Positions 5,601-18,029 of a stretch of 64,000 nucleotides of DNA are shown here, in pieces (positions within the stretch are counted from its first letter, which is position 1; every line of letters starts with the position of its first letter). Location of the stretch: positions 310,001-374,000 of the forward strand of contig NZ_PDJF01000001.1 of assembly GCF_002563965.1 (NCBI RefSeq), written 5' to 3'. The stretch comes from Corynebacterium renale (lineage in GTDB: Bacteria > Actinomycetota > Actinomycetes > Mycobacteriales > Mycobacteriaceae). The translations under genes were made by a program, and so were the position numbers. Under the pieces are notes generated by a model. The model made no database searches. It had not been told where the DNA came from and saw only the letters and a program-made list of their open reading frames with translations.

Positions 5601-6097
5601 GAGACAACGACACGCTCGGTGCCGTTCACAATGAAGGTGCCCTTTTCCGTCATCATCGGGAAGTCACCGATGAACACGGTCTGAGACTTGATCTCTTGGG
5701 TCTCATTGTTGATGAACTCTGCGGTCACATACAGTGGCGCCGAGTAGTTGATGTCCTTTTCCTTCGCCTCTTCGATGGTGTTCTTCACCGGCTCGAAACG
5801 GGGTTCAGACAAGGACAGGGACATGTTTCCGGAGTAGTCCTCAATCGGGGACAACTCTTCGAGGATCTCCTCAAGACCAGAAACTACGCGCGCGTCTTCG
5901 CCGCGGAGTTCCTGTTGTTCTGCACGCCACTCAGGCGCACCGATGAGCCACGAGAAAGAATCTCGTTGCACGTCAAGGAGACCCGGGATTTCGATTGGCT
6001 CCTGGTACTTAGCAAATGAGTACCGCTTTGGAGCACCGGGGATTTCAGCCACTGACTTGGTCTGGCGGGAGACTGCCAAGATGGGTCCTTCCAGCAC
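2603..6097 (-). CDS. rpoB: DNA-directed RNA polymerase subunit beta
   Basis: Beta subunit of RNA polymerase, 1164 residues from the GTG at 6097, the usual actinobacterial length. The rifampicin pocket near residue 430-460 reads [14 protein letters not shown] and then [13 protein letters not shown], so the positions most often altered in resistant strains (E. coli D516, H526, S531) are wild type. A TTG six codons downstream (6077-6079) has a better placed GGAAGG seven bases before it and would give [13 protein letters not shown]; the same ambiguity is known for mycobacterial rpoB. The C-terminus has an acidic DDDD stretch. Confidence 0.98.
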
Positions 6098-6206
6098 CTC
6101 ACGCGGTGAGCACGGACACCGTGGGCTGGGGCCGCCTCTACCGCTGGATAAATTTGAGCAATTAACCTGCTGTGGATACCCGCCCCTAGAATGCAGAAAA
6201 CGACCT

Positions 6207-6212
6207 TGTCAA
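6207..6212 (-). promoter_or_regulatory. possible rpoB promoter -35 element
   Basis: A perfect TTGACA on the minus strand, 110 bp upstream of the rpoB start in the 193-bp gap. The matching -10 about 17 bp downstream (near 6184-6190) is poor (CTAGGG/TCTAGG), so the call is tentative. The gap also has a short inverted repeat around TCCAA/TTGGA at 6213-6236. Confidence 0.3.
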
Positions 6213-6290
6213 GTCCAACTTTTTATAATTGGACCTTCAAGGTTTCTACGCACGCTAGAGACGGATTCCAGCGCAACGTCGTAGCTTACT

Positions 6291-7256
6291 CTACTTTTCA
6301 TCCTCACGCAAGGGCTCCATACCACTTTTGCGGTCACGCCCAAAACCGGAGAATACCCCCACCGCTCCGACCACGGCGATCAGTGCACCGAGCCCGAGAA
6401 GAATCCACGAAATGACGGTGACAGCGCCTCCGTGGCTCATATTTTCAGCGACCTCCGTCAGGCGCTGTTGTGAGTCTTCGGTAGTGCTACCGGCATACGC
6501 TAACACAGGTTCACGGAAAGTACCGTCACGCTCGCCGTAGTACTGCTCCACATCTTCGTTGATGTGGAGGACCAAACCGCTGTCTTTATCAATAAAGATC
6601 TCCCGCTCAGCGGAGTAGAACAGGTATCCCTGCTGGGGCGATCCATCATCTTGCGTCAGCATGGTGGTGTTGCCCAAGCCTGCGTACTTGGTTGCCACGT
6701 TGGTGGGCGCGATGTTTTGGGTGTACCGGTAGGTTTCCCGGCCTGCTACTTCAGCGACTCCCGCGAAGGTGACAGGTTCCGCGCTGCGCAGGTATGGGTC
6801 GAATAGTTGCGTCAGGTTGTCTGCTGCCCCGGCGGGGGTCATCCACCACGGGCCGTCGATAGGCACAGTGCGCGTTGGGGTGGCCAGGACTTCGCTGACC
6901 TCGGCGTGGTGGACTGCTTCGCCGGTTTCGCGGTCCATCGGATAGTTCCAGACGGTTGCTGTGATGAGGTTTTCGGGCTCCGGGCGGTCGGCGCGGTTGA
7001 TGGTTTCGCCGAGGCGGACCATGACATTTTCTGTGCTCGAGGGTTCTTCGAGGGTGACGTGCCACTGCCGGGTGAGGTCTGTGGTTTCTTCGCCGACTTT
7101 CGCGTCCTTGGCGTGGATTGTCCAGGTCAGCCCTGTTGTGTCGAGTGGCAGCGTAGCGGCGGTGGGCAGCATGCGTGGTGCGAGGATGCCTGCCACAGCG
7201 AGCGCTACACCCAGGCCGAGCAACAGGGTTGAAAGGACGCGGGACTTCGGAAGCAT
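6291..7256 (-). CDS. DUF3068 (PorA-family) membrane-anchored exported protein
   Basis: 321 residues with an N-terminal transmembrane or signal segment (about residues 8-32, LSTLLLGLGVALAVAGILAP), a ~240-residue extracytoplasmic part, and a C-terminal transmembrane helix (about 280-303) ending in a basic tail. This matches DUF3068, a family confined to mycolic-acid actinobacteria and named after PorA in some databases. No catalytic motif is seen and the function is not established. It is co-directional with the transporter operon upstream (stop 21 bp away) and with rpoB downstream, so it may be the last gene of the 7.3-14.8 kb unit. Confidence 0.75.
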   Translation of the reverse strand: MLPKSRVLSTLLLGLGVALAVAGILAPRMLPTAATLPLDTTGLTWTIHAKDAKVGEETTDLTRQWHVTLEEPSSTENVMVRLGETINRADRPEPENLITATVWNYPMDRETGEAVHHAEVSEVLATPTRTVPIDGPWWMTPAGAADNLTQLFDPYLRSAEPVTFAGVAEVAGRETYRYTQNIAPTNVATKYAGLGNTTMLTQDDGSPQQGYLFYSAEREIFIDKDSGLVLHINEDVEQYYGERDGTFREPVLAYAGSTTEDSQQRLTEVAENMSHGGAVTVISWILLGLGALIAVVGAVGVFSGFGRDRKSGMEPLREDEK

Positions 7257-7277
7257 GGGGGCTAGTCTACCGACTTC

Positions 7278-9311
7278 CTAGCTCCCGGCGTTTTCTCGGC
7301 CTGAAGTTCTCCGCGCGGTGGCAGCTTGTTTAAGCAGGCTGCGTGCGGAAAGCCACATGATCAGCCCGCCGAGCAGCCCCATCGACCCCATCCCGACGGC
7401 CAGGCCGGCCCACCATCCGCCCACGGTCATTCCGGTGGGGCTAGGTTGTGCTTCCACGCGGCGTATTCCGCCCTGGTTCGGGGCCACTCCCCCAGGTTGT
7501 TCGCTTATCGACGCCCCTCCGGCCAGTTCCTCTGACCCCGGAGGAAGCGTCGCTTCCTCCGGCGTCGCTTCCTCCGGCGTCGCTTCCTGCGGCGTCGCTT
7601 CCTGCGGTGCTGCGGGCGCCGGTGCAGAGGCTGGCCGCGCAGCCGGTGCCGACGGCGCGGCGGCAACGTGTTGTGCCGGTGCCGTAGCCGCAGTCGCGTT
7701 CTGCGCAGGGGCCTGCGCCGGCACCTGAGCCACCGGCTTCTTGTGAGCTGACGTCTCGGAGAGAACTGAAGCGGCGAGTTTGTCGGCGCTGCGCAGCATG
7801 GTGGTCAGGTCAGTGACTATGCCGCGTACTTCGTGGGGGTTCACGTGGCGCGTACTACCTGCCTGCTGGGTGTGGCCCGGCTGACCCTCGACCGCAAAGT
7901 GCGCGGTCAGAGGCACCCGGTAGGGTTCGCCATAAATATCTGTTCCGGAGTATTCGAAGGTCACGGTGTATGTTCCCGGCGCGCTGAAGAAGAATGCTTG
8001 GTGGTCGTGGGCGCCGGGAGCGTAGGTAACGGTTGTGGTGAGGTCGTCGGAATCGAGCGCCGTGGTGAAGTTGGTCAAGCCCACGTGTCCACTGACCATG
8101 CGCCCGGGGCCGGTGAACTCTGCGATCCGGAGAGTGATGGGCCCTTCCCCAAACATGTCTGCCCCGTCTTCGGCAGAGAATCCAACCCAGGGGACGTTCG
8201 GGTTTTCATTCTGTGTTTGGGGCAGGACCCAGACGCGCTGCGGCATTCCGGGGATGGTGAGGTCGGGGGTGGCTTGGGCGTGCTCTCCGACGACGAAAAC
8301 GAATTGGCCCGATTCGTAGCGGTGTACCTCTTTGTTTTCGGTGGCTTTGAGGTAAGCGCTCATTTCGCCCAGATAGTTTGCCCCGAGCGACAGGTCCATG
8401 TGGCCACGTTCGATGCGGCGCTTGGTCGAATCTAGTTCAGGGGCGGGCACGCCGGGACGCCCGGGTTGCGGTGCCGGGCGTGTTCCAGAGGTGGCGCCGG
8501 TGGTTGTGCCCTCGGGTAGGCCGACCTGGGTGTCGTCGCCGACGAGCCAGATGAGTTCGCGGGGGGCGGATTCGACCGGGCGGCCGTCGTGAAGCGATCC
8601 GGTGACTTTCCACGTGGTCTTATATATTCCGGGTTTGGTGAAGGCCCAGGAGTTGTGGCCGTGGCTGCCTACGTAGACGGGGAATTTTTGTGGTCCGTCC
8701 GGGATGGAGAAGAGCCGTTCCGGTGCGGGGTCGGAGGCGACGGACGCGAATGCGTGCATGGCAGCGCCGGCGGGGATGGAGTAGTCGACGAGTTCGAAGG
8801 TGAGCTCGTCGCCGTACTGGGTGGGCACGTCCCATTCGTGCGCCGGGTCGAAGGCTCCGGTGCCGGCCCAGATGGGCTTGTTGCCTTGGCTAAACGGCAT
8901 GTTCTGTGGCGCTAGCCAGATGGTGTGGCCTGGTTGTCCGAGGAATTCTAGGTGGTTTTTCGTGCCGGCGGGCTCGGGGAGGACGACACGGGAGAGGTCA
9001 TTGCCCTGGGCGTCGGATTCAGGTGCCAGGCGTAGGCATACTGTGTCCATCGGCTGGACGTGCTGGCCATTAACCACCTGAATGTCCAGGTCGCCGGCCT
9101 GGTTGTGGGTGGCGTAGAGGGCGTCGACGTGCGAGTTGAAAAGGAGGTCGCGTCCGGCACACGGGTGGTCGAGTTGCTTATCGACGCCCACCGAATGCCC
9201 CACCATTCCGGGCTTGTGCAGGGATTCCTCCGCGTGGACCATGGGGCTGCTGGCAAGCGTGAGAGTAAGTGCGGCGGTCAGTGCTGCAAGGGGTGCTTTT
9301 AGTGGGCGCAT
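7278..9311 (-). CDS. ABC transporter-associated surface repeat protein (anchored-repeat wall type)
   Basis: A 677-residue exported protein from the ATG at 9309-9311, chosen because AAGGAG stands 6 bases upstream. It has a signal peptide (about 1-27), two copies of the actinobacterial surface-anchored repeat domain (about 30-235 and 270-480) with His-rich motifs such as GSHGHNSWAF and GAHDHQAFFF, an Ala/Pro-rich stalk with EATPQ/EATPE repeats, and a C-terminal membrane helix (about 630-654) with a basic tail. It matches the putative ABC transporter-associated repeat protein class. It overlaps the permease gene by 13 bp, so translation is probably coupled. Likely role: surface capture or relay of the metal for the transporter. 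Confidence 0.8.
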   Translation of the reverse strand: MRPLKAPLAALTAALTLTLASSPMVHAEESLHKPGMVGHSVGVDKQLDHPCAGRDLLFNSHVDALYATHNQAGDLDIQVVNGQHVQPMDTVCLRLAPESDAQGNDLSRVVLPEPAGTKNHLEFLGQPGHTIWLAPQNMPFSQGNKPIWAGTGAFDPAHEWDVPTQYGDELTFELVDYSIPAGAAMHAFASVASDPAPERLFSIPDGPQKFPVYVGSHGHNSWAFTKPGIYKTTWKVTGSLHDGRPVESAPRELIWLVGDDTQVGLPEGTTTGATSGTRPAPQPGRPGVPAPELDSTKRRIERGHMDLSLGANYLGEMSAYLKATENKEVHRYESGQFVFVVGEHAQATPDLTIPGMPQRVWVLPQTQNENPNVPWVGFSAEDGADMFGEGPITLRIAEFTGPGRMVSGHVGLTNFTTALDSDDLTTTVTYAPGAHDHQAFFFSAPGTYTVTFEYSGTDIYGEPYRVPLTAHFAVEGQPGHTQQAGSTRHVNPHEVRGIVTDLTTMLRSADKLAASVLSETSAHKKPVAQVPAQAPAQNATAATAPAQHVAAAPSAPAARPASAPAPAAPQEATPQEATPEEATPEEATLPPGSEELAGGASISEQPGGVAPNQGGIRRVEAQPSPTGMTVGGWWAGLAVGMGSMGLLGGLIMWLSARSLLKQAATARRTSGRENAGS
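7546..7605. repeat. 15-bp in-frame tandem repeat, 4 units
   Basis: Four consecutive near-identical 15-bp units of the form GGCGTCGCTTCCTSC (plus strand), encoding EATPQ/EATPE in the stalk of the surface protein on the minus strand. The unit is a multiple of three, so copy-number change would alter stalk length without breaking the frame. Confidence 0.9.
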
Positions 9312-10183
9312 TCTTTCTCCTTCACGTGCGGTACTGGGTAGGTTCGCTGGCCGGCGATGGTGGTGAGGATCCAGACCACGATGAACAGGGCGGTCAGGGT
9401 GAGAACAATCGTGGCGCCGGTGGGCAGGTCGATGGACCACGAGAGGTACAGCCCTACCACCGCGCCGATAACTCCGACGGTGACGGAGACGGCCATCATG
9501 GTGCTTAAACGTGTGGTCAGCAGGCGCGCCGTCGCAGCGGGCGTAATCAGCAGCGCGAGCACCAGGATTGTGCCGACCGCGCGCACGGAAATCACCACGG
9601 CCGCCGTGACGGCGAGGTAGATGATCAAGTCCATGGCGAAGACGCGGATGTTCATCACCTGCGCGGTCTCCCTATCCAGGGCCACCGCAACCAGCCGCGA
9701 CGTGCACACAGTAATCACTGCGATCACCGCCGCGCCCACAACCGTGGAGACCACAATGTCTGTGGCAGAGATACCGGTTATCGAGCCAAAGAGAATAGAG
9801 GTCAGCGAGGTGGTGTAGCCCTGAATCCGGGACATAATAACCAGGCCCAGCGCGAACGCTGCGGCGAAGAATATTCCAATCGCGGAATCTTCGCGGACCT
9901 GCCGGCGTTGGGAGGTCACCGCGATGAGCACGGCGACTATGGCACCCGCGACCGCCCCGCCCAGCAGCACTGATCCTTGGAGTGCGAAGGCCACTGCGAT
10001 GCCCGGGAAGATGGCGTGCGAGACCGCATCGCCAATAAACGCCATGCCACGCAGCACAACGTGCACGCCCACGACCGCGCACACGATGGCAGTAACCACG
10101 GCGATGCACAGCGCTTTCGGGAGGAAGCCGAGCGCAGGGTTGGTCAGGTCCTGGATGAATTCCAGCGGGCTGATCTCAAGCAT
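9299..10183 (-). CDS. anchored-repeat-type metal ABC transporter, permease
   Basis: 294 residues with about eight hydrophobic helices, of the ABC-3 family that includes ZnuB, TroC and MntB. The N-terminal motif GVHVVLRGMAFIGDAVSHAI is typical of this family. Its start lies inside the ATPase gene (8-bp overlap) and its stop lies inside the surface-protein gene, so the three are probably translationally coupled. The substrate is inferred to be zinc or manganese from the family and from the TroA-type binding protein in the same operon. Confidence 0.9.
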   Translation of the reverse strand: MLEISPLEFIQDLTNPALGFLPKALCIAVVTAIVCAVVGVHVVLRGMAFIGDAVSHAIFPGIAVAFALQGSVLLGGAVAGAIVAVLIAVTSQRRQVREDSAIGIFFAAAFALGLVIMSRIQGYTTSLTSILFGSITGISATDIVVSTVVGAAVIAVITVCTSRLVAVALDRETAQVMNIRVFAMDLIIYLAVTAAVVISVRAVGTILVLALLITPAATARLLTTRLSTMMAVSVTVGVIGAVVGLYLSWSIDLPTGATIVLTLTALFIVVWILTTIAGQRTYPVPHVKEKECAH

Positions 10184-10952
10184 TGCGCACCTCCGGTGCC
10201 GCCACGTTGATGGCGCGCAGGAGCGGTGAATCGGAACGCACCTGAAAAGTTTCCTGCCACAGTTCCGGGCTATCGACGTCCGCGAAGGTGCCGTAGGCGG
10301 TCACGCCACCGCGGAAGAGCATGAGGTGGCCGCACGCGTCGACAGCTTCGGGCAGGTTGTGCGTACTCATCATGAGCGCGGTCCCCTCCCCCGCCAACTG
10401 CGCGAACAGGTCAAGCAAAGCTTCCACCGACGGGTAATCCAGGCCGGTAAACGGCTCATCCAGGAAGAGCACCCGCGGTTCGGTGACCAAGGCACGCGCG
10501 ATAAGCACGCGCTGACGTTGCCCACCCGAGAGCTCCGCGATGGGACGCGCAGACAAATCGTGCAGGCCCACATACGACAAAGACTTATCGACGGCCACCT
10601 GATCCTTCTTCCCCGGCAACTGCCACCACGGACGCCGGGCCACCAGCGCGTTGCGCACGGTTTGCGCGACGGTGATGGGGAAATCCCAGGCGACGTCGTG
10701 ACGCTGGGGCACGTAGCCCAGGTGACGCCGGGCCGCCTTGCCGGTGTCACCACAGATGGTTGCGGTGCCGCGGTGCGGGATAAGTCCCATCATGGCGCGC
10801 ATGAGTGTGGTTTTACCAGCGCCGTTGGGCCCGAGGAGGCCCACGAACTGGCCCGGGTAGAGCTGAAAGGAGACGTCGTCGAAGACGGCGCCTGTCCCGT
10901 AACTGACGGCGAGGTCTTCTACCTCAACGACCGGTTTCTGCGGTGCCGTCAT
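10176..10952 (-). CDS. anchored-repeat-type metal ABC transporter, ATP-binding subunit
   Basis: 258-residue ABC ATPase with Walker A GPNGAGKTT (about residue 40), signature LSGGQRQR, Walker B RVLFLDEPF and an H-loop MMSTHNLPEA. Its similarity is to ZnuC/MntA-type importers. It overlaps the upstream surface-protein gene by 4 bp (ATGA) and the downstream permease gene by 8 bp. It energises the permease encoded at 9299-10183. Confidence 0.92.
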   Translation of the reverse strand: MTAPQKPVVEVEDLAVSYGTGAVFDDVSFQLYPGQFVGLLGPNGAGKTTLMRAMMGLIPHRGTATICGDTGKAARRHLGYVPQRHDVAWDFPITVAQTVRNALVARRPWWQLPGKKDQVAVDKSLSYVGLHDLSARPIAELSGGQRQRVLIARALVTEPRVLFLDEPFTGLDYPSVEALLDLFAQLAGEGTALMMSTHNLPEAVDACGHLMLFRGGVTAYGTFADVDSPELWQETFQVRSDSPLLRAINVAAPEVRNA

Positions 10953-11809
10953 GCGCGCTCACCGCCTGCGCTGCGCCGGCGGCGCACTGCCACCGCTGCG
11001 CCGACGAGCACTGCGATGATCACGGCCGCTGCCACGATATACAGCCACGTGGTGGAAGACGCGGGCGTGTATTCGGCGCGCGCTTGTTCGGAACCGACTT
11101 CGAAGCGCAGGGGCGCGGTGGCGCTGTACTCGGTGCCGTCGGCACCAGTAGCGGTGGCAGTGACGGTGAGTTCATAGGTACCCGGCGCGCTGAACACCCA
11201 GTTCGCGTGGGTGTGCGTGTTCATATCCACCCACAGGTCCTGCGGGAGGTTCTCCGCGGAGTTCCACAGCACCTGCGGTGCCTCAAAGCCACCGTTTTGG
11301 AGGAATAAGGAGAACTGCCCGGGGCCTTCCACCTGGGTCAAGGAGAGTGTCACACCCTGCGCCCCGGACTCAATCAGGCCGGGGTGTTGGGTGTTCCATC
11401 CCAACCAGGGGACGTCCGTGGCCTCGGTTTGGGGAAGCACCCACACCGGTTTACCTGCTTCCCCGCCGGTGAAGTCGTAGGCGCGGTCGTCGGGAAGCGT
11501 GATGGCCGCGTGATCGGGAACGTTGACTGTGACGTCGGAAAGTTCGCGCCACACTGGTGGTTGGGCGTGGTCGTCGCGGACTTTCAGGCTCATGGTGCGG
11601 GCGCCGCCGTCGTCTGTGATTGTGGGGCCGATGTCCGCGTGCCCTGCCGTTAACGTTGCGGATTCACCAGCCGGGGCGTGGCGTTCGTTGGCGTCCACGT
11701 GTTGTTGTAATGCGGGGTCGACGTGCCCGTGTGCGGGGGCTATAAGCGCGGACGGGATAAGCGCCGCGATAAGGCTAACGGTTGCGATGCGCGTGGCGCG
11801 AGTAGTCAT
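10949..11809 (-). CDS. surface-anchored repeat-domain protein (choice-of-anchor type)
   Basis: 286 residues: signal peptide (about 1-28, ending PAHG), one surface-anchored repeat domain carrying GHVD, GHADI and NTHTHANWVF histidine motifs, then a C-terminal transmembrane helix (about 252-272) followed by VRRRRS. It shares the His-x-His-plus-aromatic signature with the other surface proteins of the operon. The ATG overlaps the stop of the binding-protein gene (ATGA at 11806-11809). Function is inferred to be metal binding at the cell surface; no enzyme motif is visible. Confidence 0.8.
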   Translation of the reverse strand: MTTRATRIATVSLIAALIPSALIAPAHGHVDPALQQHVDANERHAPAGESATLTAGHADIGPTITDDGGARTMSLKVRDDHAQPPVWRELSDVTVNVPDHAAITLPDDRAYDFTGGEAGKPVWVLPQTEATDVPWLGWNTQHPGLIESGAQGVTLSLTQVEGPGQFSLFLQNGGFEAPQVLWNSAENLPQDLWVDMNTHTHANWVFSAPGTYELTVTATATGADGTEYSATAPLRFEVGSEQARAEYTPASSTTWLYIVAAAVIIAVLVGAAVAVRRRRSAGGERA

Positions 11810-13299
11810 TGTGGTCTCTTTTCTTCAGTTGTGTGCTGCCCCAGGCAGCGGGAAAGTTCTTCAGCGTTGGCGTCCATAAGCTCGATGTAGGAATTCACGT
11901 GTGGGGTGAAGGTATCGCCGTGGATCTGGCAGATCCCGACCCCGGCGCCGCGCGCGATCTCACTCAACGGAGTGCTTCGACCCGCTAGCTCCGGCTCAAT
12001 GAACACGGCCGGGACGCGCAGGTTATCCAGCGCCGCGCGCACGGTGATGAGGTCCTGCGGCGAAGGCTCAATGGCCGGGTTCGGCGAGATCACCGCACCA
12101 ATCTTCAGCCCGTAGGCTTCGGCGAGGTAGTTGTAACCGTCGTGCGTGGTCACCAGGGTCCGCTGCGCCGGTGGGATGGAGTCCACAGCTGCCTGCATTC
12201 GCTTATCGACGCCTTTCAGCCTGCCCACGTACTTCCGCGCATTGTGCGCGTACTCGGCTGCGCCTTCTGGGTCGATGGCGGCCAGCTGGTTTTCGATGAC
12301 CTGCACGTACGCGATGACGTTGTCGGCGTCATGCCAGAGGTGTGGGTCAATTTCACCGTGGACATGCTTACCCAGAACCGCTTGCGGGAGGAGGTAGGTC
12401 TGCTCGCCAGGTTTTCCCAGGAACCGGTAGGTGGGGTCGGCAGGGATTTCTTGTAAGACGGATGCAGGCACCGCGATGACCGCATCTTCCGAGCGCACGG
12501 TTTCGGTCTCGGCGCCGTCGCCGACCAACAGCGTGGGCCGGCCTTGCCCCACGGAAATGTCTACGTGCCCATGATCTACGACGCGCTCTTTGGCCGCGTC
12601 CTGCGGAGGAACCCCGACTGCGACAGTGACCGTAGCGGGCTCCTCATCTGGGGCACCCACGTCGAGGGCATACACGCCCGGCTGACTAAACGCCCAGCTC
12701 ACGTGCGTGTGCGCGCCGGCAGGCAGGACGATGGAATCGCGCTTATTTATCCCATCCGCAGAATCGAAGACCACCTCCGGGGTACCGAACGTCCCTGTGA
12801 TGAAGGCGGCCACATCGCCGGGGCCGTGGACGTCGTGAAGCATGAGAGCCGTAGGGTCTTCTCCGGGTTCCACGCCAGAACGCATTCCCAGCCACACGGC
12901 GTCGAGGTTCACGTTTTCTACCAGCGGAATCTGGCGCGCGCCATAGGCCGTGGACTCTTCAGCGAGCGGGACGACGGGCGTGTCCGGCGCAGCGGATTCG
13001 TGGAGCGTTGAGGTCAGTGCGTCCGGCTCGAGGAGCAGTCCGTTGTAGAAAATGGCGTCCGCGTATGCGACCGAGCGCACCGTGCGCAGCGACGGCTCCG
13101 CGACGTGCGGGTCCATCCCCACGGGAATCAGTGAGGTGACGTCGGCGCGCTCACCTGCCACATTGCCCACAATGTCCGCGATAAGCGGGGTGCTGGCCAC
13201 CACCTGTAGCGCGTCGTGGGTGGCTGGCGTGGGCGCAGAACAGCCGGTGAGCGCAGCCGCACCCACCGCCGCCAACGCCGCAGCAAGTTTAGAGGCCAC
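11806..13299 (-). CDS. anchored-repeat ABC transporter substrate-binding lipoprotein with inserted surface domain
   Basis: A 497-residue lipoprotein from the GTG at 13297-13299 (lipobox LTGC near residue 20). The N-lobe of a TroA/ZnuA-type cluster-9 binding protein is clear (VVASTPLIADIVGNVAG and VGMDPHVAEPS). The TroA C-lobe resumes with EIDPHLWHDADNVIAYVQ and continues through a TTHDGYNYLAEAYG motif. Between them, at about residues 125-305, lies a whole surface-anchored repeat domain with GAHTHVSWAF and DHGHVDIS, so the fold is interrupted. Metal-ligand histidines of the TroA family (DPH, WHD, THD) are present. Zinc or manganese is the likely ligand. Its 5' end overlaps the upstream surface gene by 11 bp. 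Confidence 0.88.
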   Translation of the reverse strand: MASKLAAALAAVGAAALTGCSAPTPATHDALQVVASTPLIADIVGNVAGERADVTSLIPVGMDPHVAEPSLRTVRSVAYADAIFYNGLLLEPDALTSTLHESAAPDTPVVPLAEESTAYGARQIPLVENVNLDAVWLGMRSGVEPGEDPTALMLHDVHGPGDVAAFITGTFGTPEVVFDSADGINKRDSIVLPAGAHTHVSWAFSQPGVYALDVGAPDEEPATVTVAVGVPPQDAAKERVVDHGHVDISVGQGRPTLLVGDGAETETVRSEDAVIAVPASVLQEIPADPTYRFLGKPGEQTYLLPQAVLGKHVHGEIDPHLWHDADNVIAYVQVIENQLAAIDPEGAAEYAHNARKYVGRLKGVDKRMQAAVDSIPPAQRTLVTTHDGYNYLAEAYGLKIGAVISPNPAIEPSPQDLITVRAALDNLRVPAVFIEPELAGRSTPLSEIARGAGVGICQIHGDTFTPHVNSYIELMDANAEELSRCLGQHTTEEKRPQ

Positions 13300-14773
13300 G
13301 CCGGACCACCCGGGACACGTACAGCACAGCGGCACCGAAGATTAAGGCACCAAGCCCGAAGATCGCGCCCGGCACGGTGAACACCGTGGTCCCCGTGTCC
13401 GCAAGCTTCCCCGACCCCGCTGCGGGGGCGGCGCAATGGTCCTGGCCGTTCGGGTCGACGGCCGGACCGAAGTCGTAGTGGCCGTCGTTCGCGTTACCGG
13501 CACCCCCGACGACGAACGTGAGCGTGCCCGCCCCCGTAACAGTGCGCCCATCCTTGAGTTTCAACGACTGCTCCACATTCACCTGGTAGGTGCCCTCGGC
13601 GCCGAAGAGCCACGAAGGATGCACGTGAGTATTCAGGGGCAGGCGGACCTCGCCGCGCGCACCGCTCCCGTCGAACGTAAACCATTCTTCGCCCACGACC
13701 TGCCCCAGGCTGCCCTGCGTATACACGTACATCGGGCCCGGGCCAGTCACGGACTTCAGGCGCATCGTCACCTCCCCTGTGCCATGCTCCAGCACACTGG
13801 GGTGCTGCGTGTTCGCACCCAGCCACGGGACACCGGCCTGCTGCGTAGAACCAATCATCCACACTTGCCCCTTAAGCGGTCCGACCTGCTCCGGCAGAGT
13901 GATCTTGGCTGCCTCGCCGAGCCCAAAACGCAACGAATCCGCCGCCACCCACCCCTGCGGCCCCTTGACCATGGGGGTTAGAGCGGGCGTGCACTTTTCT
14001 TGGTTGCTTTGCGACGCCCCTCCGGCCCCCTGCGCCTGCTTAGCAGCAGGCGCAGCGGATGGTGCCGGCGCCGGTTTCTGCTTTGCGGGCGCAGCTGGAG
14101 CGGGGGCCGCGGGTGCTTGTGCCGGAGCTGCGGGCGCTGCGTAGGCGCTGGCACCTCCGACCTGCCAGGTGTAGCGGGCCGTATTGCTGCGCTGACCTCC
14201 CCCTTCAGCGACGACGTCCATCGTGTACATGCCAGGCTGGGTGAACGCCCAGTTAGCGTGGGTATGCCCAGGCTGTGACTGCACGATCTGCGAACCGGTG
14301 CGCAACGCGATGGAACCGTCCGCCGTCACGGCCTGAGCCCCACCGAAGGAAGCCGTCTGCCACACGTACACCTCGCCCGGGCCTGCAACCTGCGTGAAGT
14401 TCAAGGTAATTGAGTCCATACCTGCATCCGCGACCCCGAAGGTGTCCCAGCCGGGCCACAGGAGTCCGGCTTGCTGGGTTTGCGGAAGGAAATAGGACCC
14501 GGTGCCTATCGCGTCCACTTGGGCGGTGTCTTCTGTCCATGCGTTGTCCCCTACCTCGAGGAGGACGTCGCTAGCCTCGTGCTCCACGTGGGAGCCGGTG
14601 ACGTCCTCTTTGAGGTTGAGGTGTAGTTGTCCGCCAGGGGCAGTGACGTTGAAGGCGTCGACATGCCCCTGGTTGAGTGTGACTGATTGCGCTGCCGCCG
14701 GCGTGGTTGTGATGACGGTCAGCGCGAACGCACTGATGAGTGCGCCGACGCGTGCTGATAGTCGTGTTAGCAC
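13289..14773 (-). CDS. two-domain surface-anchored protein with LADTG sorting-type signal
   Basis: 494 residues from the GTG at 14771-14773, with GGAGG eight bases upstream. Order: signal peptide (about 1-29, ending AAAQS), repeat domain 1 (about 30-205, GHTHANWAF), an Ala/Pro/Lys-rich linker (about 208-255), repeat domain 2 (about 260-425, NTHVHPSWLF), then LADTG near residue 462, a hydrophobic helix and RVVRRGL. That C-terminal arrangement is a sortase-type sorting signal with A in place of P. It is the first gene of the six-gene metal uptake operon, directly after the two candidate operators. Confidence 0.85.
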   Translation of the reverse strand: MLTRLSARVGALISAFALTVITTTPAAAQSVTLNQGHVDAFNVTAPGGQLHLNLKEDVTGSHVEHEASDVLLEVGDNAWTEDTAQVDAIGTGSYFLPQTQQAGLLWPGWDTFGVADAGMDSITLNFTQVAGPGEVYVWQTASFGGAQAVTADGSIALRTGSQIVQSQPGHTHANWAFTQPGMYTMDVVAEGGGQRSNTARYTWQVGGASAYAAPAAPAQAPAAPAPAAPAKQKPAPAPSAAPAAKQAQGAGGASQSNQEKCTPALTPMVKGPQGWVAADSLRFGLGEAAKITLPEQVGPLKGQVWMIGSTQQAGVPWLGANTQHPSVLEHGTGEVTMRLKSVTGPGPMYVYTQGSLGQVVGEEWFTFDGSGARGEVRLPLNTHVHPSWLFGAEGTYQVNVEQSLKLKDGRTVTGAGTLTFVVGGAGNANDGHYDFGPAVDPNGQDHCAAPAAGSGKLADTGTTVFTVPGAIFGLGALIFGAAVLYVSRVVRRGL

Positions 14774-14819
14774 CCGTTAAACCTCCTGCATACAGGTATT
14801 TTGCGGAACCCAAGCCCGC

Positions 14820-14840
14820 TATTGGTAACATTTCCCATTA
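14820..14840 (-). promoter_or_regulatory. candidate Zur-like operator 1
   Basis: On the minus strand the site reads TAATGGGAAATGTTACCAAT plus A, a partial inverted repeat (TGG-AA...TT-CCA). It shares 14 of 21 positions with the second copy 40 bp upstream. Both resemble the AT-rich TGAAAA...TTTTCA palindromes bound by actinobacterial Zur (FurB). It lies 47-67 bp before the start of the surface-protein operon. Confidence 0.45.
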
Positions 14841-14859
14841 ACTCGTGCCGACTCTACAC

Positions 14860-14880
14860 TATTGGGAATGCTTTTCGTTA
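14860..14880 (-). promoter_or_regulatory. candidate Zur-like operator 2
   Basis: On the minus strand: TAACGAAAAGCATTCCCAAT plus A. It has the same TAAyG..AA...TT.CCAATA pattern as the copy at 14820-14840 with centres exactly 40 bp apart, so both would lie on the same face of the helix. The GAAAA half matches Zur-type half-sites better than the first copy does. Confidence 0.45.
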
Positions 14881-14983
14881 ACGGGTTACAGTGTCGAGCT
14901 GTTCGCGCACCCCGGACACCGGATTGTGGACTACCAACCACCCGCACCGAACACACTCAAGGGTCTTTCGCTGCCCATTTTTC

Positions 14984-15016
14984 TAGATTTGTAACACCCT
15001 GAGTGATACAAATCTA
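14984..15016. repeat. 10-bp perfect inverted repeat
   Basis: TAGATTTGTA (14984-14993) and TACAAATCTA (15007-15016) flank a 13-bp spacer. The site lies in the 845-bp non-coding stretch 14,774-15,618. AT-rich arms and lack of a T-run argue against a strong terminator; an operator is possible. Confidence 0.6.
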
Positions 15017-15094
15017 TAAATTCTTGGCCCAGAAAGCTTGCACCATACAAAGACAGGCTCGACGCTGCCCCGAAAATTAGGAGCCGAACCACGA

Positions 15095-15183
15095 TGTCGC
15101 GAAGCCTCCATTCTGCCGGTCGGTGCGGGACGAAATCGCAGGTCAGATTTTTGAAAAAGTTACAGAATGGAGGCCTTGCGACA
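15095..15183. repeat. 89-bp fold-back element (21-bp arms, 19 of 21 matching)
   Basis: Left arm 15095-15115 (TGTCGCGAAGCCTCCATTCT plus G) and right arm 15163-15183 are inverted copies with two mismatches. The inner 47 bp is bounded by CATTCTG and CAGAATG, exactly as in the 87-bp elements at 15353 and 28713. It therefore looks like a diverged member of the same family. No believable gene overlaps it. Confidence 0.7.
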
Positions 15184-15352
15184 ACGATAACGAAAGCGGG
15201 ATTGCCAATCTCCTGTTTCGGCGCCTTAGCGCGAGTTAAATAAAGAAAAGTAGGTCTCAAATCCGGAATAGCCGCGACTCACGGGCCTAGAACAGGTAAC
15301 TGTAAACAGATCACATACTGCAGACTCTCGATCGGCGCATGTACTCAGCAAC

Positions 15353-15439
15353 GATACTAAAAAGACATTCTGTAGCCGTCCGGGAAAATTCACCTTGGCG
15401 TTTAACGTGGATTAACTGCCAGAATGTCTTTTTTGTATC
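15353..15439. repeat. 87-bp fold-back (MITE-like) element, copy A
   Basis: Arms GATACTAAAAAGACATTCTG (15353-15372) and its near-perfect inverse at 15420-15439 (19 of 20) enclose 47 bp containing GGGAAAATTCACCTTGG. A second copy of the same length and layout lies at 28713-28799, and similarity continues for about 25 bp beyond the right arm. Neither copy encodes a transposase. Confidence 0.85.
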
Positions 15440-15547
15440 GCGCGCTGCCACCCGCACATAGCCGAGACACACCGGCGTGGCCATGGCGCAACCTCCACCA
15501 CGACCGGCCACGCTTTTCCTTAACCCGAATCTGCCCCACGCATAGCA

Positions 15548-15578
15548 AAAGGCTCCAACCACATGGGTTGGAGCCTTT
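15548..15578 (-). terminator. rho-independent terminator after rplL
   Basis: A 13-bp stem AAAGGCTCCAACC/GGTTGGAGCCTTT with a 5-base loop, 40 bp beyond the rplL stop, followed on the minus strand by TTTTGC. It closes the rplJL unit. Confidence 0.85.
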
Positions 15579-15618
15579 CGAAAGCTTTAGGTCGCGCGTT
15601 ATGCGCAATCCGGAAGTC

Positions 15619-16005
15619 TTACTTCAGGGTGACCTTTGCGCCGGCCTCTTCGAGCTTAGCCTTTGCAGCCTCAGCGTCGTCCTTGTTTGCGCCCTCGAGG
15701 ATAGCCTTAGGAGCGGACTCTACGAGCTCCTTAGCTTCCTTCAGACCCAGGCCGGAGACGATCTCGCGGACAGCCTTGATGACGCCGATCTTCTTAGCGC
15801 CTGCGTCCTCGATGACAACGTCGAACTCGGTCTTCTCTTCAGCTGCGCCAGCGTCGCCGCCAGCTGCACCTGCTGCTGCGACTGCAACTGGAGCTGCAGC
15901 CTCAACGTCGAATACCTCTTCGAATTCCTTAACGAACTCGGACAGTTCGATGAGGGTCATTTCCTTGAAAGCCTCGATGAGCTCATCCTTGGAAAGCTTA
16001 GCCAT
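15619..16005 (-). CDS. rplL: 50S ribosomal protein L7/L12
   Basis: 128 residues, the normal length. An N-terminal dimerisation helix (about 1-35, rich in Glu and Leu), an Ala/Gly hinge (about 40-55) and the C-terminal factor-binding domain with [20 protein letters not shown] are all visible. It forms the flexible stalk that recruits EF-Tu and EF-G. It lies 67 bp downstream of rplJ, and a terminator follows. Confidence 0.98.
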
Positions 16006-16072
16006 GGTGGCGTTCCTTTCTGTTGTGGTGCTGCCGGTTTAGGCGGGCACCGGAATGGTTTGGGGGGTTTGT

Positions 16073-16591
16073 TTACTCTGCCTGCTTCTTTTCCTCGAGG
16101 GCCGCTGCGAGGCGGACCATCTTGGAAGCCGGTGCGTTGAACACCGCTGCAGCCTTGGCCAAGCTGCCCTTCATTGCGCCAGCCAGCTTTGCCAGCGTGG
16201 TCTCGCGGTTGTCGAGGTCTGCGATAGCCTTTACCTGGTCGGCGGTCAGAGCCTTGCCGTCCATGTAGCCACCCTTGACGATGAAGGCGTCGTTGCCCTT
16301 GGCAAAGTCCTTCATGACCTTTGCAGCGTCAACAGCCTCGCCCTTGATGAAGGCGATAGCGGTTGGGCCGGTCAGGTGCTCGTCAAGTCCCTCGATGCCT
16401 GCGTCAGCAGCTGCGAGCTTCAGAAGGGTGTTCTTGGCGACGGAGTACTCGACATCCAGGCCGAGGTTGGTGCGCAGCTCAGTGATCTGAGCAACGGTCA
16501 GACCGCGGTACTCGGTGAGCACGACGGAGTCAGCCTCTGCGAAACGGTTCTTCAGCTCTGCGAGCTGTTCGACGTTCTTCGGGTTTGCCAT
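16073..16591 (-). CDS. rplJ: 50S ribosomal protein L10
   Basis: 172 residues from the ATG at 16589-16591, chosen because AAGGAGG is correctly spaced and because MANPKNVEQLAELK matches corynebacterial L10. L10 anchors the L7/L12 stalk dimers to 23S rRNA. The motif VVLTEYRGLTVAQITELR is typical. It is preceded by a long structured leader with an attenuator, consistent with autoregulation by the L10-L12 complex. Confidence 0.98.
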   Translation of the reverse strand: MANPKNVEQLAELKNRFAEADSVVLTEYRGLTVAQITELRTNLGLDVEYSVAKNTLLKLAAADAGIEGLDEHLTGPTAIAFIKGEAVDAAKVMKDFAKGNDAFIVKGGYMDGKALTADQVKAIADLDNRETTLAKLAGAMKGSLAKAAAVFNAPASKMVRLAAALEEKKQAE

Positions 16592-16667
16592 GTACTTCGC
16601 CTCCTTCCTGACGTTCATATTTGTATTGTCCGCCGGAACTTCCCTGCCGCCACCAGAAGGTAGCCAA

Positions 16668-16840
16668 CAAAAAAGCCCCGTGCAGGGAGCACAGGGCCTT
16701 AAATACTTTAAGGGCTCTAAAGTGTCTCCTGCGTGGGCCGCCTACTAGCGTAGGACCTTCGATCCGGCTAGCCGGATGACCGACGGTCTTCGGTGAAACT
16801 TGAGCTCAGCCCCACCGCAGCGGGACTGTTCAAACTTCGG
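16668..16840 (-). promoter_or_regulatory. ribosomal L10 leader with attenuator hairpin
   Basis: The leader upstream of rplJ contains several stems, a CGCAGGAGACACTTTAG segment typical of actinobacterial L10-binding leaders, and a terminator-like hairpin (GCCCTGTGC/GCACGGGGC, 16673-16697) running into TTTTTT. It lies between the promoter at 16847-16875 and the gene, as expected for L10-L12 feedback control. The exact ends are estimates. Confidence 0.65.
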
Positions 16841-16846
16841 GAGACA

Positions 16847-16875
16847 ACCCTACTACGCGGCGTCGAGAAGCGCAA
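16847..16875 (-). promoter_or_regulatory. rplJL promoter
   Basis: A -35 TTGCGC (16870-16875) and a -10 TAGGGT (16847-16852) are separated by exactly 17 bp on the minus strand. The predicted transcript start is near 16840, about 250 bp before rplJ, at the beginning of the leader. It lies just 6-34 bp beyond the rtcB stop. Confidence 0.55.
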
Positions 16876-16880
16876 ATCCC

Positions 16881-18029
16881 TTACGTTCCCTTGACGTTGA
16901 GCACCTGCCGCAAGGTGTGCGTGACGCGCACCAGCCCGCGGGCATCCTCCATGACCTGGTCGATGTCCTTGTATGCGTCGGGAATCTCGTCGATCCACGC
17001 TTCGCCCGGCCGGTACACGATGCCTTCCATGCGCGCGGCGAGGTCCTCAGCGGTGAACGCTTCGCGCGCTTTGCGACGACTCATCCTCCGGCCCGCACCG
17101 TGAGGTGCAGAATGAAGCCCCTTCGGATTGCCCAGCCCTTCGACAACGTAGGAAGACGTGCCCATTGAGCCCGGAATGAGCGCGGGGACGCCAGCGTCGG
17201 CCAGAACAGCGCCCTTGCGGGTCAACCACACCTGTTCACCATAGTGTTCCTCCCGCACCGTGTAGTTGTGGTGGCAGTTGATACGCTGCTCCTCCTCCAC
17301 GGGGCGGCCCACAAAATCTCCGAGAGCCCGGGCGAAACGGTCCATCATCTCTTCCCTGTTGAGCCACGCAAAACGCTGCGCCCAGTGCAGGTCGGCCAGG
17401 TAAGCGTCGAATTCCGGGGTACCCTCCTCCAGGTACGCCAAGTCCTTGTGGGGCACGCGGTCTGCGGTCAGGCGCTGGGCAATTTTGATGTGCCGCTGCG
17501 CAATTTTGTTGCCCACGCCCCGAGAACCGGAGTGCAGGAACATCCAGACGCGGTCCTCCTCATCGAGGCATAGTTCGATGAAGTGGTTACCGCCGCCAAG
17601 CGAACCCAACTGCTGGCGCCAATTCTTCGAGTGCCGCAGATCTACCCCATCGCGGCGGGCCTGCGCGTCAAGCTCTCGGCACCGCTGTTCAGCGGATTCT
17701 GTGAGATTCCAGGAGTTGTAGTTCCCCGGGGAAAGGGGAATATCTGCTTCCAGGCGGTCGCGGAGCTCAACCAGATCACGGCCTTCCAAATCGGTGGCCG
17801 TGAATCTGGTTCTCACCCCGATCATCCCGCAGCCTATATCCACCCCGACCGCGGCGGGGATCACAGCACCTTTCGTCCCGAATACGGTGCCCACCGAGGA
17901 GCCCATCCCGAAGTGGGCGTCCGGCATGAGTGCCACGTGCGGGTAGATGAAGTCCAGTGTTGCCAGTTGGCCAACCTGCTCGAGGACCTCTGGTTCCAGA
18001 TGTGATGCAAAGTTTTTAATGTCAGCCAC
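16881..18029 (-). CDS. rtcB: RtcB-type RNA ligase
   Basis: 382 residues from the GTG at 18027-18029, which has AAAGGG seven bases upstream; an upstream in-frame GTG at 18095 lacks a ribosome site. RtcB joins 2',3'-cyclic phosphate or 3'-phosphate RNA ends to 5'-OH ends using GTP and Mn2+. The metal and guanylation motifs are present: VGVDIGCGM (Asp64, Cys67), GGGNHFIEL, LHSGSRGVG, NCHHNY, and SAPHGAGR carrying the guanylated His. It stands alone, between the L10 leader and the exporter genes. A bipartite inverted repeat lies upstream. Confidence 0.93.
   Translation of the reverse strand: MADIKNFASHLEPEVLEQVGQLATLDFIYPHVALMPDAHFGMGSSVGTVFGTKGAVIPAAVGVDIGCGMIGVRTRFTATDLEGRDLVELRDRLEADIPLSPGNYNSWNLTESAEQRCRELDAQARRDGVDLRHSKNWRQQLGSLGGGNHFIELCLDEEDRVWMFLHSGSRGVGNKIAQRHIKIAQRLTADRVPHKDLAYLEEGTPEFDAYLADLHWAQRFAWLNREEMMDRFARALGDFVGRPVEEEQRINCHHNYTVREEHYGEQVWLTRKGAVLADAGVPALIPGSMGTSSYVVEGLGNPKGLHSAPHGAGRRMSRRKAREAFTAEDLAARMEGIVYRPGEAWIDEIPDAYKDIDQVMEDARGLVRVTHTLRQVLNVKGT

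What the first reader, a model, noticed from the sequence alone, without database searches (positions are those of the whole stretch)
7278..14773. Six-gene anchored-repeat ABC metal transporter with four surface-domain proteins
The genes overlap at nearly every junction, and the only transporter parts are the binding protein, permease and ATPase. The other three genes are surface proteins carrying one or two copies of the same domain, each with a His-x-His-aromatic motif (THANWAF, THANWVF, HGHNSWAF, HDHQAFF, HVHPSWLF). This suggests a chain of metal-binding domains from the wall (LADTG) through membrane-anchored forms to the lipoprotein. The family layout is known from sequence models, but as far as I know its mechanism is not. 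It sits between rplL and rpoB, an unusual place.
Basis: partly seen in the sequence, partly recalled or inferred. Interest (0 to 1): 0.72.

Follow-up and report, generated by a model that had tools for sequence, protein, structure and literature searches.

The report
Zinc importer with reshuffled zinc-binding domains
This is a Corynebacterium zinc-uptake operon of an already studied kind whose surface proteins and binding protein share one domain; the unreported detail is that the domain occurs in rearranged (circularly permuted) forms, one of them built into the binding protein.

Summary
Six overlapping minus-strand genes (7278-14773, between rplL and rpoB) encode a wall protein, ZnuA, ZnuE, ZnuC, ZnuB and ZnuF. 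The system is known: it matches NCBI's anchored-repeat transporter models and the Corynebacterium diphtheriae znu cluster, where Zur/zinc regulation, zinc binding and a need for ZnuE are published (PMC6711530, PMC12445094). "Mechanism unknown" is thus out of date, but a wall-to-membrane relay remains unproven.

New here: (i) two Zur boxes before the wall gene are the best two sites of the 64 kb; 64 of 80 related loci have a site against 12 of 80 for a control matrix. (ii) The domain inside ZnuA is a circular permutant set into the TroA fold just before the second metal ligand, where AztC and AdcA carry transfer or His-rich loops; HxH precedes HxD, all invariant, in 81 of 81 sequences. (iii) The wall protein's second domain appears to be a different permutant, its HxD strand at the C-terminus.

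I read it as a Zur-controlled Zn(II) importer with surface zinc-capture domains: a new member of a known kind with an unreported domain architecture.

The parts
15546..15580 (-). Strong terminator-like hairpin after rplL
   Evidence: -26.8 kcal/mol, z -5.5; not listed by the pattern scan (T run lies within the stem)
14860..14880 (.). Zur box 1 (candidate)
   Evidence: 20.0 bits, second best of the window
14851..14856 (-). Possible -10 element TAGAGT between the two boxes
   Evidence: seen by eye; position; no promoter reported by the consensus scan
14820..14840 (.). Zur box 2 (candidate)
   Evidence: 24.5 bits, best of the window; one of two places in the genome that fit the strict pattern
13289..14773 (-). 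Wall protein, 494 aa, two domains, LADTG tail (TIGR03773)
13424..14005 (-). Wall domain 2, HxH at 383 and HxD strand at 432 on its C-terminal side (permuted)
11806..13335 (-). ZnuA, lipoprotein SBP of TroA type with a nested domain (start GTG 13335 or 13299)
12379..12930 (-). Nested, circularly permuted domain in ZnuA (profile 69-162 then 1-72)
10949..11809 (-). ZnuE, 286 aa, one domain and a C-terminal hydrophobic segment
10176..10952 (-). ZnuC, ATPase (TIGR03771)
9299..10183 (-). ZnuB, permease (TIGR03770, ABC-3)
7278..9311 (-). ZnuF, 677 aa, two domains, C-terminal hydrophobic segment, no LPxTG-like signal seen
6291..7256 (-). PgfA/DUF3068 gene; neighbour, membership of the operon open

Best explanation
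A single Zur-repressed operon encodes a high-affinity Zn(II) importer. When zinc is scarce, Zur leaves the two boxes before the wall gene and all six genes are made. The sortase-anchored wall protein, ZnuF and ZnuE carry all-beta domains whose HxD and HxH motifs together form one metal site; they capture zinc at wall and membrane. ZnuA carries a circularly permuted copy of the same domain where other zinc SBPs have their His-rich/D-loop, next to its TroA cleft (His77, His332, His398, Asp474). I propose that this copy receives zinc, most likely from membrane-bound ZnuE, and feeds the cleft; ZnuB/ZnuC then import it. Shown here by computation: anatomy, Zur boxes, permutation, ligand conservation, insert position. 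Shown by others in C. diphtheriae: Zur/zinc control, thermal shifts with zinc for ZnuE/F/G, need for ZnuE and its His residues. Inferred: one joint HxD/HxH site, and the hand-off from ZnuE to nested domain to cleft.
For: Family models over cut-off for the three transporter parts and the wall protein. Zur boxes are the top two of the window; 64 of 80 related loci have a site of 15 bits or more against 12 of 80 with the reversed matrix; sites also precede a second domain protein (1038 aa, two boxes) and a second ZnuA-type SBP in the same genome, with none over 10 bits at the third SBP locus; one Fur-family match in the genome. H77, H332 and the nested HxH and HxD are invariant in 81 of 81; H398 in 75, D474 in 79. 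The aligned Mn SBPs printed have Glu where H398 stands. Insert directly before H332: query 62|280 aligns to PsaA chain positions 63|98, the place of the AztC D-loop (residues 117-133, before H138; loop and its 3 His essential for zinc transfer, PMC7463823, passages) and of the AdcA His-rich loop (120-136, before H140; PMC7858048, passages). C. diphtheriae data: PMC6711530 (passages), PMC12445094. Order znuA-E-C-B in 75 of the 76 loci with enough downstream DNA; in the other one (L016) znuC and znuB share one frame (4 of 80 loci too short).
Against: No functional data for this species. In C. diphtheriae, znuF or znuG deletion did not affect growth while the transporter was present, znuA deletion had only a modest effect, and ZnuE with its His residues replaced still gave a zinc thermal shift (PMC12445094). 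The best sequence and fold neighbours of the SBP are Mn proteins (Listeria MntA 5hx7, PsaA 3ztt). Six of 81 ZnuA lack His at the third ligand. No coordinates were available, so no distance between nested site and cleft could be measured. The promoter consensus scan found nothing upstream. 16 of 80 related loci show no Zur-type site at this threshold.
Confidence: 0.6

Rival explanations
1. Zinc importer as above, but the wall protein, ZnuF and related surface proteins are a zinc buffer or store; there is no ordered hand-off, and zinc reaches ZnuA by diffusion. The nested domain only raises local zinc.
For: In C. diphtheriae ZnuF and ZnuG reduce growth when the transporter is absent, which the authors suggest may be sequestration on the surface, and storage is one of their proposals; single deletions do not affect growth when it is present (PMC12445094).
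Against: ZnuE is needed for growth in low zinc and lies directly after znuA in 75 of 76 loci; the nested domain keeps its motif in 81 of 81 and sits at the transfer-loop position.
Confidence: 0.27
2. The importer mainly serves manganese or several metals.
For: Best SBP neighbours by sequence and fold are Mn SBPs; C. glutamicum Zur also bound DNA with manganese in vitro (PMC2823685, passages).
Against: Zur boxes; His rather than Glu at the third ligand in 75 of 81; AztC is the best NCBIfam model after the family's own (172.8 bits against 153.5 for the Deinococcus MntC model); zinc phenotypes of the C. diphtheriae orthologues.
Confidence: 0.06
3. The nested domain in ZnuA is a structural or docking module (for the permease, ZnuE or the wall) and does not bind metal itself.
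For: Conserved motifs can serve folding; in C. diphtheriae the His mutants of ZnuE and ZnuG were less stable and binding to the motif was not proven (PMC12445094).
Against: HxH and HxD are kept in every chain order seen, including wall domains that have no transporter to dock to; that is indirect.
Confidence: 0.07

Closest known systems
C. diphtheriae znu cluster (znuAECB and znuF-znuG-dip0444-dip0445; DIP0438-0445)
   Same: Order znuA-E-C-B-F, between rplL/rplJ and rpoB, DUF3068 gene at the end, Zur control, HxD/HxH proteins, ZnuF without a sortase signal (PMC6711530, PMC12445094).
   Different: Here the sortase-anchored protein comes first, upstream of znuA, and has two domains; there is no room for a dip0444-like gene (21 nt between znuF and pgfA); no Zur-type site was found before znuF, whereas C. 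diphtheriae has a second zinc-regulated promoter there.
Anchored repeat-type ABC transporter (NCBIfam TIGR03769-TIGR03773, NF038134)
   Same: SBP, ATPase, permease and wall protein over the curated cut-offs.
   Different: The ZnuA copy scores just below the short-repeat cut-off (29.2, cut-off 30.9) and matches the domain model in two pieces in swapped order.
AztABCD (Paracoccus denitrificans zinc transporter with chaperone AztD)
   Same: Zinc SBP with an element before the second His ligand that is needed for protein-to-protein zinc transfer (PMC7463823, passages).
   Different: AztD is a beta-propeller and the D-loop is short; here a whole domain sits there and the neighbours carry the same domain.
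AdcA/AdcAII with Pht proteins (Streptococcus pneumoniae)
   Same: Surface His-motif proteins plus zinc SBP; AdcA has an extra zinc domain and a His-rich loop (PMC7858048, passages; Pht as discussed in PMC12445094).
   Different: The extra domain of AdcA is C-terminal and ZinT-like; Pht proteins use another His motif. No direct comparison was run.
Isd/NEAT and Hta heme relays (recalled, not tested here)
   Same: One domain repeated from wall to membrane lipoprotein.
   Different: Heme rather than zinc; other domains.

Membership tests
Anchored repeat-type ABC transporter (TIGR03770/71/72/73) | SBP, ATPase, permease and wall protein over the curated cut-offs | tested here: met
   567/350.45, 285.9/268.8, 399.8/296.8, 285.8/190.3 bits
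Anchored repeat-type ABC transporter (TIGR03770/71/72/73) | Surface proteins with the NF038134 domain beside the transporter | tested here: met
   wall 2, ZnuE 1, ZnuF 2 domains over the cut-off
C. diphtheriae-type znu cluster | Gene order znuA-E-C-B followed by znuF | tested here: met
C. diphtheriae-type znu cluster | Wall gene (znuG) downstream of znuF and a second Zur promoter before znuF | tested here: not met
   wall gene is first; best site between 7000 and 11800 is 1.2 bits
Zur regulon | 21-bp palindromic Zur box at the operon start | tested here: met
   24.5 and 20.0 bits; the four training sites score 25.6-31.2
Zur regulon | Zinc- and Zur-dependent expression | not testable with these tools
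   shown for the C. diphtheriae orthologues (PMC6711530, passages)
Cluster A-I zinc SBP (ZnuA/TroA/AztC) | TroA-type fold with three His and one acidic ligand | tested here: met
   target TM 0.77-0.89 in the 50 rows shown; H77, H332, H398, D474; ligand roles assigned by alignment, not by a bound metal
Choice-of-anchor M domain, usual order | HxD at the N-terminal end and HxH near the C-terminal end | tested here: inconclusive
   met in ZnuE, both ZnuF domains and wall domain 1; not met in ZnuA and wall domain 2, which are permuted

The most novel reading that the evidence does not exclude
One zinc-site domain is used in three chain orders within a single operon (usual order; cut near profile position 70 in ZnuA; cut near position 14 in the wall protein), and in a fourth (cut near 130) in relatives. 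The permutant in ZnuA replaces the zinc-transfer loop of ordinary zinc SBPs, making an internal hand-off station that takes zinc by domain-to-domain contact with ZnuE and passes it to the cleft.
Probability: 0.35. Interest if true: 0.6.

Novelty: new member of a known kind. Interest (0 to 1): 0.4.

Why it matters
The transporter kind is known, but how its surface domains work with ZnuA is open: the published mutants gave mixed hints and could not prove that the HxD/HxH motif binds zinc. That HxD and HxH survive every chain order seen is independent, evolutionary support for one joint site. A nested domain at the transfer-loop position turns a vague chain idea into a specific test: change only the nested HxH/HxD of ZnuA and measure zinc transfer from ZnuE.

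Tried and rejected
Second Zur promoter before znuF, as in C. diphtheriae: no site with this matrix. RNA families in 6000-17000: none. Consensus scan upstream of the wall gene: no promoter and no terminator listed, although the fold shows a strong hairpin. Scan of 6050-7400: two weak promoter-like sites and one terminator-like site, the latter within the shuffle range; not used. Solved relatives of the domain by sequence: none (two chance hits at E 0.99 and 1.5; with a 41-row profile, two hits at E 0.22 and 0.86). Fold search with the wall model gave only target TM-scores of 0.02-0.22 in the 50 rows shown, to adhesin, Ig-like and other proteins; I take no fold name from it. Pfam on 41 domains: only hits at E 0.035 and above.

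Tree of 46 ZnuA rows with wall-domain class as label: 6 changes for three classes, but the CP0 class mixes proteins without the second domain and proteins whose last domain has the usual order, the root is at the midpoint and several branches are long (window 1.01). I make no claim on the number of permutation events.

Limits of controls: the profile dom2 was built from 343 stretches that include wall-protein pieces, which favours scores of wall pieces (not their order); ZnuA was left out. Wall-type proteins were taken as frames whose best query was the window's wall protein with over 150 bits (48 frames in 47 of 80 loci); other domain proteins of these loci were not classified. The Zur matrix rests on four published C. 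glutamicum sites; and searches use different pseudocounts, so bits differ a little. One search used coordinates typed; it counted 15 rplL rows as not printed, one of which (G171) was printed on another contig, so 14 are undetermined.
Full report
WHAT IS THERE. The window lies in a genome of 2,348,927 bases in one contig. I take it for Corynebacterium by its relatives: its rpoB is 84.6-88.3% identical, over 667 to 1164 aligned residues, to the rpoB found in six loci recorded as Corynebacterium. On the minus strand the order is rplJ, rplL, wall protein, znuA, znuE, znuC, znuB, znuF, pgfA (DUF3068), rpoB (rplJ, rplL and rpoB named by reading the translations). All five junctions among the six genes overlap. 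rplL is followed by a strong terminator-like hairpin at 15546-15580, so the operon probably sits at a transcription boundary rather than inside one unit; that last step is inference.

FAMILY. The transporter parts and the wall protein exceed NCBI's cut-offs for the anchored-repeat ABC system. In a sample of 201 genus genomes, 94 carry the SBP over cut-off. Of those 94, by coordinates have the locus just downstream of rplL (this genome included), 27 just upstream of rplJL within 12 kb, 1 about 19 kb away, and the other 62 were far away, on another contig, or had no rplL row at hand. The neighbourhood therefore recurs. Among 80 loci, order znuA-E-C-B holds in 75 of the 76 with enough downstream DNA; in L016 znuC and znuB share one frame; 4 loci are too short.

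KNOWN WORK. In C. diphtheriae the corresponding cluster is zinc- and Zur-repressed, with a second zinc-regulated promoter inside the permease gene, and its place between ribosomal and RNA polymerase genes was remarked on (PMC6711530, passages). ZnuE, ZnuF and ZnuG give thermal shifts with zinc and share an HxD/HxH motif; ZnuE and its His residues are needed for growth in low zinc; ZnuF reaches the wall without a known sortase; the authors note that in ZnuA the motif is in reverse order with 45 residues between (PMC12445094: abstract, introduction, results parts 1-3 of 4 and discussion read). None of the papers listed in my searches was, by its listing, about circular permutation of this domain; the library holds open-licence PubMed Central papers only, and I read none of those others.

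REGULATION. A matrix from four C. glutamicum Zur sites (PMC2823685, passages) puts two sites, 14820-14840 (24.5 bits) and 14860-14880 (20.0 bits), first and second in the whole window; the third is 11.9 bits. The strict pattern WWNTGNNAANNNTTNNCANWW occurs at two places in the genome, one of them box 2. Of 80 related loci, 64 have a site of 15 bits or more in a stretch of up to 12 kb, against 12 of 80 with the reversed matrix; positions within the operons were not counted. In the same genome, sites precede a 1038-aa protein with three such domains (25.6 and 21.8 bits), a second ZnuA-type SBP (21.6) and a 466-aa lipoprotein (24.3), while the best site at a third SBP locus is 9.5 bits.

THE DOMAIN AND ITS PERMUTANTS. 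A 183-position profile was built from 343 stretches outside ZnuA. ZnuE, both ZnuF domains and wall domain 1 match it in the usual order. ZnuA matches positions 69-162 first and 1-72 afterwards; NF038134 gives the same picture, 70-167 then 1-73. Of 81 ZnuA (window plus 80 loci), both halves met my limits in 72, always in swapped order; in the other 9 the main pieces listed also come in swapped order but begin at other profile positions. Putting the halves back into usual order raised the best score in 72 of 72 (median 67.3 to 111.0 bits), with a near full-length match in 66; the same kind of rotation of 285 canonical domains raised none. The HxH and HxD residues of the nested domain are invariant in 81 of 81.

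In 49 wall-type proteins (48 frames from 47 loci plus the window) the last domain falls in three classes: 23 (window included) match from position 13-19 to 183 and then show an HxD segment at the C-terminal end; 9 match 119-131 to 183 and then 1 or 2 to 132-137; 17 end with a domain in usual order, some of these being single-domain proteins. Rotation raised the score in 23 of 23 and 9 of 9. Gains in the first class are small: median 160.4 to 172.9, with 162.1 for a shuffled-tail control; window 141.1 to 147.7, control 142.2. The structure model of the window's wall protein (pLDDT 82.7) places the C-terminal HYD in a confident strand (402-411 of the model; block pLDDT 95), as strand 7-15 carries HVD in domain 1; the remaining strands correspond broadly by order (my reading of the strand list). 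So permutation is strongly shown for ZnuA and for the 9, and well supported but by a short segment for the window's wall domain 2.

ZnuA MODEL. AlphaFold2 with 81 sequences: pLDDT 89.7, pTM 0.83; a mostly-strand insert of about residues 105-274 (add 42 for gene numbering) sits inside a TroA-type fold. Foldseek matches whole TroA-type SBPs over 459-473 alignment columns with target TM 0.77-0.89 in the 50 rows shown, so the SBP fold is intact around the insert. By sequence the gap opens after query residue 62 and closes at 276-280, just before GEIDPHLW. AztC has its D-loop there, which with its three His is essential for receiving zinc from AztD (PMC7463823, passages), and AdcA its His-rich loop (PMC7858048, passages). 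Two further His just before the ligand (KHVHGEIDPH, gene residues 324 and 326) are invariant in 81 of 81.

HOW IT LIKELY WORKS. Zur-controlled zinc capture at wall and membrane, hand-over to ZnuA through its nested domain, import by ZnuB/ZnuC. Anatomy, boxes and conservation are computed here; transfer is inferred. Against it stand the dispensability of ZnuF and ZnuG and the mild znuA phenotype in C. diphtheriae, and the retained zinc shift of the ZnuE His mutant. Zinc rather than manganese is favoured by the Zur boxes and by His398 (75 of 81) where the Mn SBPs printed have Glu, against the fact that the top SBP hits are Mn proteins.

VERDICT. Observation confirmed; interpretation partly supported; a new member of a known kind, with a domain architecture I found no report of and that is directly testable. 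Interest 0.4.

Noticed in passing
own genome G000:C1:1032261-1035374 (L094:3262-6375, minus strand): CmrA2-like 1038-aa frame with three domains in usual order and an LADTG tail; two Zur-type sites upstream (25.6 and 21.8 bits).
   Followed up: partly
own genome G000:C1:564280-564300 (L093:4281-4301): Zur-type site (24.3 bits) in front of a 466-aa lipoprotein with a HELVH motif and no NCBIfam match at E 0.01.
   Followed up: partly
own genome G000:C1:1135191-1135976 (L097): A second ZnuA-type SBP (323-aa frame) with a Zur-type site (21.6 bits), divergent from a frame that looks like a LacI-type regulator by eye.
   Followed up: no
window 6291-7256: PgfA/DUF3068 gene only 21 nt after znuF and 193 nt before rpoB; whether it is co-transcribed with the zinc operon is open.
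   Followed up: no
L057, L058, L066, L068, L075: Wall proteins of Actinomycetaceae, Micrococcaceae and Dermabacteraceae whose last domain is permuted near profile position 130; four of these five printed (not L057, L075 exactly) show a junction like VGG-GNA-SGHFD also seen in the corynebacterial form, suggesting descent from a tandem duplication (read by eye).
   Followed up: partly
L013, L015, L017, L020, L023, L031, L041, L042, L047: Corynebacterium loci with the operon directly upstream of rplJ instead of between rplL and rpoB; L019 (C. silvaticum) has it between, as here.
   Followed up: partly
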